A stretch of 64,000 nt of DNA, taken from Escarpia spicata. Lineage: Eukaryota; Annelida; Polychaeta; Sabellida; Siboglinidae. The number at the start of each line of letters is the position of its first letter. Position 1 is the first letter of the stretch. The stretch lies in the NCBI GenBank assembly GCA_963995525.1, contig OZ023212.1, positions 6,145,855 through 6,209,854 on the forward strand, read 5' to 3'. The notes under the pieces are model-generated. The model did not search any database. It saw only the letters and a program-made list of their open reading frames with translations, and was not told the DNA's origin. This document shows positions 170 to 61,100 of the stretch, in pieces. Both the position numbers and the translations under genes were made by a program.

Positions 170-3100
170 GTAACTACAATATGTCTTAGGAAAACACATA
201 ATCATAATAAAACTTTATTTTAACACTCAAATCCGGGGCTCCTGCCCCACTCATTGGAGTAAACAAACATCAAATTTAACAAATCGGTCCAGATAAGACT
301 TATATAGGTAGTTATAAATAATAACTAATAATAATAGGCTGTATCTTCTCCTTCCTCTTGCGGGGCGGGGTCCACATCACTCAGTGGCTTATTCTGCTTT
401 TCTCGTTATTTCCCTCCACCTCTGTCTGTTGTCCGCAATTACCTGCCCTCCTAAGGTCTTAGTCTTAGGTGTTGCTTCTCTACACAGCCCCTTCTGGGGC
501 TAACCTAGGAGATGTAGGTCTCTTTTCATGCTGTCATTCCATCTCGGCTTTGGTGGTTCCTCTTTGTCATAGTTATACAATACATAATGTGTTTAAAACT
601 ATGCAGAATGTTCACATGTATCAATTATCTGACGTAAATATTTCTGGGTTACATTGCATTCGTATAAGAATATGTTAAATAGTAAGTAAAGTAGAGCAAC
701 ATTGTAGGCGTATCACCTTACTCATTGGGTGATTATTTCTAAAAGCATCACAACTATTGTGTGATCTAGTCACAAGACTAAAGAGGACAGGACAGAATAA
801 AAAGGGATGTATTCCTGGGGCAGCCCCGGGAATAAATGGCAGGGATAGTCATGGATTCTGTTCATCCGACTGGGAACAGTTGCTCATAGTTTGGAAACCT
901 ATACACCACACTATATTCCAAACATTCAAGGATCTAATTTTCATGGGGCTAGAGTCCTTGTAAGTCCTATGTAAATTTTTTAAGCAAAGGATAAATCTTA
1001 CATAAGTGGAACGCAGTGGTGTAGTGGCTGGAACGTCGAACTCAATTGAAAGATTCTGGGTTTGAATCCTCTAGCTGCCCATTGGGCAACTTCTTCCACT
1101 CTACATTGCTCTAGTTCACCCAGCTGTATGTATGAATGAGTACCTGGCTATATAGGCAGTGGTGATATTTATGTACATAATATTTGCATGTACATTACAG
1201 CATGGCTGAATGCTTTCCAGAGAAGTCGAGATGGTGTTCGATTGAACATGTCTGCCATGGAGTAAAGTGTAAAGCGCTTTGTGCAGTCCTGATGACTGGA
1301 TAATGTGCTATATAAGAACTTACCTTCAAGGAGTAGACAGTATAGTATGAAATGTTGCTAAGTGTACTTGTGGACCTTGTAGGCACTGGCAAGTCACAGT
1401 TCCTCAAGTACGTGGCCAAGGTTTCTCCTCGGTCAGTTCTGACCACTGGCATCGGCAGCACTAGTGCTGGTCTCACGGTCACTGCTGTCAGGGTCAGTCT
1501 CTCACTTGGTCAAGTTTGTGAGCATAAAAGTAGTTATTGTATCAGTTATGGTACCGTCATGATATAGAAGGCTTGACATTAAGAGGTAACACTGAATAGT
1601 TAAAAAAGATATTGATATGAAATTTGTTTAATTTAAAAAAGATAAGAAACACCATTTTACTCTTTGTGCTCAAGTAAATGCTAATGACATGAATTGACAG
1701 GCGTCCTACAGGAGCAGGCTACACTTGTTGTGTCTCCCAGTGTCTTCATTGTCCACTTTCTATTTGTTTAAATCTGTTAAATTTTATTAACAGATTCATC
1801 ATCTGTTTAAATGTTATAATGTTATTAACATTTTGTAGAAATGTTGTTTAAATCTGATTTAATGTTGTTAAAATTTTGTTTTAATCTTGTTTCAGTCTTG
1901 TTCAAGTATTGTTAAGACGATTTTAATGTCTTGTTTTGATCAACGCTTAAAATCTTGTTTAAAATCTTGTTAAACCTCTGGTGTTTTGATCAACACTTAA
2001 AATCTTGTTAAACCTCTGCTGCGTGACAGGATGGAGGTGAGTGGCAGTTGGAGGCAGGAGCCCTAGTTCTCTCCGACGGAGGACTCTGTTGTATCGATGA
2101 GTTCAACAGCATCAAAGAACATGATAAAGTCAGCATCCACGAAGCAATGGAGCAACAGACAATCAGCGTTGCCAAGGTGATATTCTTTGTTGCCAAGGTG
2201 ATATTCTTCGTACCAAGGTGATATTCGAAATAGGCACTAACTTACCTGTCTTTGCTGTGCTGATAACATCTTTTTGATATTTTTTTTGTTGAAATTAATA
2301 GGGTGGTTCCCATGATAGCAATGTGTGATGTCTTAAAAGGTCCATGCTATGAATTCTAAATCTTGGTGATATATGTAAATTTTAAGTAAAATAAAATGTA
2401 TATGCTTCTCCGAGTTTCTTCAATACAGCATGGTATATATTATATTAAAAATGTACATTTATTTTAGCAAACCAACACCTATGCGATACGTTTTACATTG
2501 TGTGGTAGCTATGTGACCTGGGGAACTTTGCACCAAGACAATAGCTCGTAGGAAAATCAATAATTAAGCAGAATTCGTTGTTAAATTTAAGGGGCTTTTT
2601 CAAAATGCAAAAACTGCCACTGCATCATGGAAGTTGTTCCCACTTTGACTTCTCTAGGCCGGCCTCGTCTGTAAACTGAACGCTCGGTGCAGCATCCTGG
2701 CTGCAACTAACCCCAAAGGCACCTACGACCCAAACGAGGTAACAGCTTTATCTATGCTCTCTGCTTACTCAGTCATGATGCCTTTATTATGTGGACATTT
2801 TGTCTAAGGGCAAATTAGGACGTGTTGGAAGTGTGTTTATATTAGTCTGATCATGTGGTTTGGCAGTAAGAAAAATTACGATATATATGTAAGACTCGAT
2901 TCTTTGATGTCGTGGCCAAAGACCAAAGAGTACTATGGATAGACTTAGTTTGTTTATTCAACAATAAAGAAAACATCTCTATGCATGGATTTGTGGTTAT
3001 GGAAATTGCATGTAGTTATAATGTAAATTATCATCCCATTTCCATCAACAAAATGTACAGTATTACCTGTGCTAGTGAAGACTGTGACCGGTGATCTGTG

Positions 3101-58100: not shown

Positions 58101-61100
58101 GATGTTGTGTTACTAAGTACACAGAGGCTTACAAAGCATAGTGTAATGTATGCATCTGAATAGTTTTGTATAAAACTGTCCCAGACCAAGATAGCTTACA
58201 AAGGAATCTGTCACTCACTAAAGTAGCTAACCAAAGAATCTGTCCCAGACTGAGGAACCAGAGAATCTGTCCCAGTCCGAGAGACCATGGAATCTGTCCT
58301 AGACTGAGGAACCAGAGAATCTGTCCCAGTCCAAGAGACCATGGAATCTGTCCCAGACTGAGGAACCAGAGAATCTGTCCCAGTCCGAGAGACCATGGAA
58401 TCTGTCCCAGACTGAGGAACCAGAGAATCTGTCCCAGTCCGAGAGACCATGGAATCTGTCCTAGACTGAGGAACCAGAGAATCTGTCCCAGTCCAAGATA
58501 CCATGGAATCTGTCCTAGACTGAGGAACCAGAGAATCTGTCCCAGTCCAAGAGACCATGGAATCTGTCCCAGACTGAAGAACCAGAGAATCTGTCCCAGT
58601 CTGAGAGACCATGGAATCTGTCCCAGACTGAGGAACCAGAGAATCTGTCCCAGTCCGAGAGACCATGGAATCTGTCCCAGACTGAGGAACCAGAGAATCT
58701 GTCCCAGTCCGAGAGACCATGGAATCTGTCCTAGACTGAGGGACCGTGGATTCTGTCCCGGACTGAGGGACCATGGAATCTGTCCAATGGGGACCCAAGA
58801 ACCAACCTTGTCCTGCTGTAGTTCCTCCACGTTGGTCTTGACATGGTCTACCTCCTGCTGCATGTGATTCTTGTCCTCGAGGGCCTGCATCCGTTCCTTC
58901 AGGTGCAGCTGCAGTCTCTCATTCGACTCCGTCAGTAACTTGTCGACAGTTGCTGACAGTCGCGCGTTGTGGTCCTCATTCAACTTCTCCCGCTGCCGTG
59001 CCTGTCTCAACAAACACAACATGCATTAACTCTCACCAATATCATGTTTATTTTACCACCTGAGCTTGGTTTTAAACACAAAAGATCTTATTATTATGTT
59101 TTTAGATTTTATTATTTTTATCAGAAGCAATAACAAGGAGAAACATTGCCCTGATAGTACGCAATAATTCATATTTTAGACATACAACCATTATAAGGGA
59201 AAAGAAAAAAAGATAACAGAAATCAAGGATCGGAATCGAGGCCAGCCTCACTCCTGACAGACAGGGAAACAAGAGTAAAACAAGACACACTTTGCCATCC
59301 ACTGCCTGCAATATATTTCTTAAACAGTTTTTATAATTTTCCTCACAAGCAGTAATAAGGAGAAACAATGTCCTAATAATATGTGGATACTTTAGACAGT
59401 TTGCCATCAACTAAGGAAATTTAATTTAACGTACATTTCTCCAGTCTCTAGCTAAATGAAACACGAGAGTGTTCGTAACTCTCAGGCAATAAGCCAGTGA
59501 AACACACGGAGCAATAGATGGCGCCACCTACCCGTTGCAGTTCGGAGGTTCGCTCATCCAACTGACTCTCCAGGAGTTGTACACGCTCCTCCGCGGAGCC
59601 GTGGCGCTCCTCCGCCTACAACAGGGAGACCTCATTAATTCAATGTGCATGTGCGTACGTGTATCTGTGTGTGCATATTTGTGTGTGCGCATGTGTGTGT
59701 GTGCATGTGAGTGTCTCTGTGTGTGCGTGCATTTATGTAGTATAGTGTGGGTGTCGGCATTATGGTACATGTGTGTGCGTGTGCATGTGTGTGCGTGTGC
59801 GTGCGTGTGTGAGTGGGTGTATGCGTCCGTGTATGCTCTACCTGTAATCTCTGAACTAATTTAACCTCCACTGTTGGCAGTACATTTGTCTTATGGAATG
59901 TGTGCGCGCGTGCGTGCATGCATGCATGCGTGCCCTACATGAAACAGAGCCTGCAATCTCTGGGCTAGCGTAGTTGGCAGTACGTCACTGTTACAATGTG
60001 TGTGCATGTTTGCTTGCTTGTGTGCATACATGCATGCATGAGTGCATGAGTGCATGAGTGCATGTGTGCCCTACCTGAGACAGAGCCTGCAGCCTCTGTG
60101 CTAGCTCAGCCTCCACTGTTGGCAGTACGTCACTGTTACAATGAGTGCATGAGTGCATGAGTGCATGAGTGCATGTGTGCCCTACCTGAGACAGAGCCTG
60201 CAGCCTCTGTGCTAGCTCAGCCTCCACTGTTGGCAGTACGTCACTGTTACAATGAGTGCATGAGTGCATGAGTGCATGAGTGCATGTGTGCCCTACCTGA
60301 GACAGAGCCTGCAGCCTCTGTGCTAGCTCAGCCTCCACTGTTGGCAGTACGTCACTGTTACAATGAGTGCATGAGTGCATGTGTGCCCTACCTGAGACAG
60401 AGCCTGCAGCCTCTGTGCTAGCTCAGCCTCCACTGTTGGCAGTACGTCTGCATTGCGTTGAGTTTGCTGCAGTTTCTGGTCCGCAGTATCGAGCTTCTCC
60501 TGAATGCTGATGGTTTTCTCCTCCAACTGAAACAGCCACCAGGGGGTGCTCAATACACACTAAATTACAACCAGTCACTTCAGATAGTGTAAGTAAGATC
60601 TGCTCAACATTTAATGTTATTAAAATCTAATTTTTTTTATTTTCCTATGGAATTTTATCGAATAAAAAATCTAAAAAAATAGATCTCCCATACGTATATA
60701 AAAATCCACATTCTATAAACAAAACGTACATTCTTATACATAAATATGCACTTTTGATATGGGAAGGAATGTGACCTGTTGTGAATGAATAATAAGAACA
60801 CCTACCGATTTGATTAGTGAGTCTTTGGTTTGAAGCTCTGATTCTAGTTTGTCATTGAGGTCATGGACTGACGTTGACTCGCGTTGTGCATTCAGGTATC
60901 TCTTCTCGAGGGTCGCGATGCGTTCCTCCTGGTCCTCTTTCTGGGCCACCGACTGCACAAACACCCACAGTCAGTCACTGATGATATACAAAACTGAAAA
61001 TTTAACTTAGACACATTAGTCAGTAAACACCCTAAATGAAAATAATTTATTTGTTTAAGTTTTTCTCGAGTCTCTAGCTTTCAATTTCTGTAAATATCCA

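What the first reader, a model, noticed from the sequence alone, without database searches (positions are those of the whole stretch)
1934..60526. Minisatellites seeded at splice junctions in two unrelated genes
In MCM9 and liprin-alpha, on opposite strands, at least six tandem repeats are copies of an exon-intron junction: MCM9 exon (c) donor, exon (e) acceptor and exon (e) donor; liprin exon D donor, exon P acceptor and exon Q acceptor. Three more arrays start within about 10 bases of a splice site (liprin F donor, I acceptor, M donor). Copy numbers run from 2 to about 60 and units from 20 to 111 bp with unrelated sequences, so this is not one mobile repeat but a recurring local process. I recall 'mirage' intronic minisatellites in amphioxus Adh being described near exon boundaries; that is memory, not checked. 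Possible causes are repair of breaks at R-loops, or selection tolerating duplications there because the outermost copy keeps splicing.
Basis: partly seen in the sequence, partly recalled or inferred. Interest (0 to 1): 0.92.

Follow-up and report, generated by a model that had tools for sequence, protein, structure and literature searches.

The report
Tandem repeats that copy splice junctions
In a deep-sea tubeworm, some of the many tandem repeats in gene introns run across an exon edge, so the splice junction itself is copied a few to about fifty times while the outermost copy stays intact; this was known in amphioxus, and splice junctions do not appear to be favoured sites.

Summary
Their units carry 9-57 exonic bases plus intron. 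The sixth (P acceptor) is a two-copy repeat crossing the exon edge by at most 4 nt. Of three abutting arrays, two lie 7 and 11 bp away, one 21 bp.
The source is a vestimentiferan tubeworm (liprin 96% Ridgeia, 91% Lamellibrachia). Five more such arrays were found in three other genes of its genome (two kinesins, a myosin).
The kind is known: amphioxus 'mirages'. Seeding at splice junctions is not supported. With a matched detector, junction windows lie in local repeats no more often than intron windows: 2/80 against 4/80 (30 nt away) to 16/80 (1000 nt) in an independent sample; 4/56 against 7-9/56 (30-200 nt) in this window. Independent sequence has 4 spanning arrays in 120 junctions, about 2.0 expected from uniform seeding (P 0.14).
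Decoy splice sites mostly persist; exonic and intronic parts of copies diverge alike. I favour general intronic minisatellite growth, tolerated at junctions because the outermost copy still splices. Splicing itself was not tested.

The parts
1383..12271 (+). MCM9 gene portion, exons a,c-j (a1383-1492 c2030-2176 d2658-2738 e5326-5461 f6709-6811 g7260-7360 h7991-8073 i8528-8606 j10074-12271)
   Evidence: in-frame splicing; PDB 7wi7 MCM9 E 1.3e-129 for the helicase part; tubeworm MCM9 proteins
30912..62083 (-). liprin-alpha gene portion, exons A-U (U placed by its open frame and similarity to the L. satsuma C-terminus)
   Evidence: in-frame splicing; PDB 3tad E 2.8e-155; Ridgeia 96%, Lamellibrachia satsuma 91%
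2167..2226 (+). junction array, MCM9 exon c donor: GTTGCCAAG|GTGATATTCTTT, 21 bp, 2.9 copies; 2 of 2 decoys keep GT
3323..5342 (+). junction array, MCM9 exon e acceptor: TGTTCTGTCCCTGCAG|TGTCTCAGTGTGAACGT, 33 bp (with 25-bp variants); 48 of 52 aligned copies keep AG
5451..5669 (+). junction array, MCM9 exon e donor: ACACCCCCTAG|GTAAGTCAA, 20 bp, about 9 copies; 8 of 8 aligned decoys keep GT
59911..60448 (-). junction array, liprin exon D donor: 57 nt of exon D + GTAGGGCACACATGCA, 111 bp; in the three exon-proximal decoys every aligned base is identical (one has a 16-bp insertion), the distal one is 67/85
40002..42779 (-). junction array, liprin exon Q acceptor: 100 bp, 27.8 copies, about 98% identical, 41 exonic nt identical to the real exon; AG in 28 of 28 copies read (real one included)
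43567..43660 (-). two-copy repeat (37 bp) at liprin exon P acceptor, at most 4 exonic nt
53484..54095 (-). array abutting liprin exon I acceptor (24 bp, 25.7 copies, gap 7 bp)
45403..46065 (-). array abutting liprin exon M donor (16-bp type; TRF end 46058, alignment to about 4 bp from the donor)
58236..58785 (-). array near liprin exon F donor (54 bp, 10.2 copies, gap 21 bp by TRF)
1925..2018 (+). two-copy 50-bp repeat ending about 8-11 bp before MCM9 exon c acceptor, no exonic base

Best explanation
These are mirage-type junction-spanning minisatellites. In this tubeworm introns often gain tandem duplications. A duplication that lies across a splice junction leaves exon and junction intact in its outermost copy, so it is nearly neutral and can grow like any intronic minisatellite, filling the intron with decoy donors or acceptors that the spliceosome mostly passes over. 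Shown: the arrays, their exonic content, intact outer copies, decoys mostly retaining GT or AG, similar divergence of exonic and intronic parts, recurrence in other genes, and rates not above intron background. Inferred: that splicing uses the outermost copy in vivo, that growth is by slippage or unequal exchange, and that arrays wholly inside exons are removed by selection.
For: Five clear arrays in 56 window junctions. Five more in three other genes: a kinesin gene whose tested exon has KIF22 as best PDB match, donor and acceptor; a C13 kinesin donor; a C4 myosin with donors of two consecutive matched exons. Divergence from decoy consensus over nine of the ten arrays: exonic 0.036, intronic 0.028, P 0.17. 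Junction dinucleotide kept in at least 92% of aligned decoys in 9 of 10 arrays, 23 of 32 in the other. Local duplicates centred on exon middles: 0 of 49 and 0 of 29. Junction windows in local repeats no more often than intron windows. Independent spanning arrays 4 of 120 junctions, about 2.0 expected. Distal D copy degenerate, proximal ones intact. Liprin proteins of two relatives carry no array-derived residues at D/E and P/Q, though whether those species have the arrays is unknown.
Against: Pooled with the window, 9 against 3.60, P 0.012, so a mild preference is not excluded. The splice dinucleotide is less diverged than the rest of the unit in 8 of 9 arrays (sign test P 0.04), a hint against strict neutrality of decoys, though copies were found by aligning to the real junction. 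Per-array exonic minus intronic divergence runs from -0.035 to +0.079. No RNA data.
Confidence: 0.78

Rival explanations
1. Junction-targeted process: splice junctions are hotspots, for example through transcription-linked breaks or R-loops at exon edges.
For: Window excess: 5 against 1.63 expected, abutting ends 4 of 12 against 0.52; pooled 9 against 3.60, P 0.012.
Against: Independent sample: coverage and local duplication rise away from the junction; 4 of 120 against about 2.0, P 0.14; abutting arrays 0 against 0.6; in the window junction windows are below intron windows.
Confidence: 0.14
2. Functional arrays: decoy sites are kept by selection to regulate splicing or expression.
For: Junction dinucleotides kept in most decoys; dinucleotide mismatch lower than the rest of the unit in 8 of 9 arrays (sign test P 0.04).
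Against: The differences are small; the myosin donor-2 array has lost GT in 9 of 32 copies; units differ from gene to gene; exonic parts of decoys diverge like intronic parts.
Confidence: 0.04
3. Assembly artefact: collapsed or falsely expanded repeats.
For: High identity of the Q array (98%); an amphioxus mirage was reported as aberrantly assembled in the genome draft (passage in PMC3087553).
Against: Ten arrays in five genes; copies differ by scattered substitutions; the six contigs seen are 55-90 Mb long.
Confidence: 0.03
4. A mobile or dispersed repeat that inserts at splice sites.
For: None found.
Against: Q query matched only its own array; exon/donor part of the D unit only its own locus; units unrelated, each containing the local exon's own bases. 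Only 2 of 10 units were searched genome-wide.
Confidence: 0.01

Closest known systems
'Mirages' of amphioxus (Adh3, troponin C, globins BflGb6/BflGb9, PGBD5)
   Same: Minisatellite-like tandem duplications spanning 5' or 3' exon-intron boundaries, 10-160 bp units, many copies keeping AG/GT (passages of PMC3087553 and PMC3902484)
   Different: Here in an annelid; up to about 50-60 copies; ten arrays in five genes; no evidence here on instability or splicing. The original Adh3 paper (PMC117041) is not held and was not seen.
Human variable internal tandem repeats at exon-intron boundaries
   Same: Minisatellites at boundaries that may form novel introns (passages of PMC2812944)
   Different: Those were studied in segmental-duplication paralogs and half lie in coding sequence; here no local duplicate was centred on an exon middle (0 of 78).
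[quoted passage not shown] ATP2A1, potato RdRp)
   Same: Tandem duplication carrying splice signals (passages of PMC4974935)
   Different: No new intron was seen here; existing introns are lengthened. The arrays could be raw material for it.

Membership tests
mirage minisatellites | tandem repeat unit contains both exon and intron bases of one splice junction | tested here: met
   10 arrays, 9-57 exonic nt
mirage minisatellites | found at both 5' and 3' boundaries | tested here: met
   7 donors, 3 acceptors
mirage minisatellites | unit length in the reported range (10-160 bp) | tested here: met
   20-111 bp
mirage minisatellites | many copies keep AG/GT | tested here: met
mirage minisatellites | arrays do not disturb splicing of the mRNA | not testable with these tools
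   only indirect: annotated relatives' liprin proteins carry no insertion; whether those relatives have the arrays is unknown
mirage minisatellites | length instability, somatic or germline | not testable with these tools
   one assembly, no reads; the Q query matched no other contig
mirage minisatellites | homogenised inside, boundary copies diverged | tested here: inconclusive
   distal D copy diverged, but the exon-proximal copy equals or nearly equals the decoy consensus in the nine arrays analysed

The most novel reading that the evidence does not exclude
A vestimentiferan genome in which a few percent of all splice junctions, thousands of them, are multiplied into decoy arrays that the spliceosome ignores, with coding exon ends exchanging sequence with their intronic copies. 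That would be a natural experiment on splice-site choice and a large reservoir for intron gain, outside chordates. The rate seen was 4 of 120 junctions, interval 0.9-8.3%; the extrapolation to the genome is inference.
Probability: 0.45. Interest if true: 0.72.

Novelty: new member of a known kind. Interest (0 to 1): 0.5.

Why it matters
Dozens of near-perfect decoy splice sites beside the real one, in several genes of one animal, make it testable how the spliceosome picks the outermost copy (exon definition against scanning), and whether such arrays feed intron gain. Finding the amphioxus phenomenon in an annelid suggests that it follows from intronic minisatellite load rather than from chordate biology. 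The negative result on seeding warns against reading junction arrays as evidence for a junction-specific mutational process.

Tried and rejected
Rejected: junction-preferred seeding as the main explanation; a dispersed repeat (the other eight units were not tested: the MCM9 e and KIF22 unit searches did not complete); strong constraint on decoys. The K donor 19-bp similarity was left out as possibly chance. One search assumed that loci were turned to the match strand; they are not, so its junction calls for '-' matches are wrong and were replaced. The 33-mer table is biased because units were cut at AG. In one search two unit lengths set by hand (45 and 47 bp) were off; with 37 and 50 bp the expectation is 1.63 instead of 1.64. 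A whole-genome test was not possible.

Dropped rows: 11 of 60 exon loci as near-duplicates; 20 of 120 possible junctions (domain ends or weak splice score) and 4 of 44 (weak score); low-complexity arrays were filtered out of the coverage counts. L069 and L070 were fetched because of arrays already seen; their further exons are not in the 120 junctions, so the KIF22-like acceptor array is not in the rate. L074 was taken for its exon count, but one search had already shown large arrays beside one of its exons (L036), so sample B may lean towards arrays; that would work against my reading.
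Full report
What is there. The window holds part of MCM9 on the + strand and part of liprin-alpha on the - strand. Exons were placed by reading frame and splice consensus and checked against solved structures and tubeworm proteins. Liprin is 96% identical to Ridgeia piscesae and 91% to Lamellibrachia satsuma, so the source is a vestimentiferan annelid, not amphioxus. 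The assembly has 1.06 Gb in 1097 contigs; the six contigs seen are 55-90 Mb. The size is near the 1,090.9 Mb listed for Paraescarpia echinospica (passages of PMC9921365), but the species is not established. The L. satsuma liprin and MCM9 proteins come from contigs of the same length, 647,144, which suggests conserved linkage.

The arrays. A junction-centred self-alignment over 56 junctions and reading of the sequence give five arrays with 9-57 exonic bases: MCM9 c donor, e acceptor, e donor, liprin D donor and Q acceptor. The P acceptor is a two-copy, 37-bp repeat with at most 4 exonic bases. The I acceptor (7 bp), M donor (11 bp by TRF) and F donor (21 bp) have arrays beside them.

How the copies behave. 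Decoy junctions keeping AG or GT, of all aligned copies: liprin Q 27 of 28 and KIF22-like acceptor 14 of 15 and myosin donor 1 20 of 21 (in each the remaining copy has no aligned junction), MCM9 e acceptor 48 of 52, MCM9 e donor 8 of 8, liprin D 4 of 4, MCM9 c 2 of 2, KIF22-like donor 7 of 7, C13 kinesin 5 of 5, myosin donor 2 23 of 32. Over nine arrays (c donor left out), mean mismatch to the decoy consensus is 0.036 in exonic, 0.028 in intronic positions (P 0.17) and 0.022 at the splice dinucleotide; the dinucleotide is below the rest in 8 of 9 arrays, sign test P 0.04, which may reflect selection, or the way copies were found. The real junction differs from the decoy consensus at 0-4 positions; two of the four at the C13 kinesin are unaligned bases. 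In the Q array exonic substitutions are 14 of 1170 and intronic 8 of 1430. In the D array the proximal copies are intact and the most distal is 67/85. This looks like largely neutral, recently homogenised repeat growth.

Elsewhere in the genome. Searches of the window's own assembly with the Pfam myosin head and kinesin families gave 78 and 124 exon matches; the best 30 of each came with 1.5 kb on each side. TRF and splice calls on these 60 loci found two junction-spanning arrays, both kinesin donors (L046: 66 bp, 53 exonic nt; L043: 33 bp, 11 exonic nt). Ten-kb stretches added an acceptor array in the same gene as L046 (L069; best PDB match of its tested exon KIF22) and donor arrays of two consecutive matched exons in a C4 myosin gene (L074). 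The sequences show the exon ends inside the units. No array touched the listed exons of L071, L072, L073, L075 and L076, and one search lists no other spanning array among L071-L080.

Are junctions preferred? Three tests. (1) Coverage at 80 non-redundant junctions: 2 of 80 at 3-20 nt into the intron, 8-15 of 80 at 400-1400 nt; the far positions may pass into the next exon or intron. (2) Matched detector, the same 30-nt probe centred on the junction or inside the intron, threshold 32: 2/80 at junctions, 4/80 at 30 nt rising to 16/80 at 1000 nt, 0/49 in exon middles; at threshold 40 the 30-nt position gives 2/80, equal to the junction. In the window 4/56 at junctions, 7-9/56 at 30-200 nt, 14/34 at 600 nt, 0/29 in exon middles; the probe misses the c donor, so 5/56 is fairer. 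(3) Seeding model, in which a unit may fall anywhere that leaves the exon intact: sample A 2 observed, 1.3-1.5 expected; sample B (22 new exons, 40 junctions) 2 observed, 0.48 expected; pooled P 0.14. A two- to three-fold preference cannot be excluded (pooled 9 against 3.60); a strong one is unlikely. Splice sites in the sample were called with a matrix trained on 28 introns of the window and may be off by some bases.

Mechanism. A tandem duplication across one splice junction leaves an intact exon and junction at the outer end, so it is tolerated where a duplication inside an exon is not; this follows from geometry. The rest, that the spliceosome uses the outer copy and that growth is by slippage or unequal exchange, is inferred. 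In amphioxus RT-PCR and Adh3 data were reported to suggest normal splicing (passage in PMC3087553).

Literature. Searches for mirage/minisatellite/amphioxus, tandem repeat with splice-site terms, tandem duplication with intron gain, amphioxus with intron terms, annelid minisatellite introns, vestimentiferan minisatellites and minisatellite with exon-intron boundary: in the listings and the passages I opened, junction-spanning arrays called mirages appear only in amphioxus. The nematode paper with 'mirage' means a transposon class (passages of PMC7960049). An abalone gene has a polymorphic 27-bp intron minisatellite, not described in the passages as crossing a junction (PMC6905558). Human boundary repeats (passages of PMC2812944) and earthworm metallothionein intron minisatellites (passages of PMC12783039) are related but different. 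Two tubeworm genome papers were searched for tandem and intron terms and their passages do not mention such arrays (PMC9921365 and PMC8789280). Most listed papers were not opened and the library is open-access only, so absence in print is not shown.

Noticed in passing
54096-55153: Within liprin intron H-I a stretch of about 515 bp, including non-repeat sequence, is present twice in tandem between 24-bp arrays (read).
   Followed up: no
53256-53262: Liprin intron I-J appears to use a GC donor (ATCAG|GCAAGT).
   Followed up: partly
5810-6340, 14659-17311, 18779-20537: Open frames resembling pieces of reverse transcriptases of non-LTR elements (recognised from memory of motifs, not searched).
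   Followed up: no
G000:C10:398669-821086: Many kinesin exon matches with equal or near-equal scores on both strands within about 0.4 Mb, perhaps a recent gene cluster (sequences not compared).
   Followed up: no
L056, L057, L058 (C732, C907, C254): Near-duplicate kinesin exons on three contigs, each with a 66-bp array of 21.8-21.9 copies 79 bp from the acceptor: possible haplotypes or recent duplicates.
   Followed up: no
39098-39674: 27-bp array, 21 copies, in liprin intron Q-R about 190 bp from both exons: an intronic array with no exonic bases.
   Followed up: no
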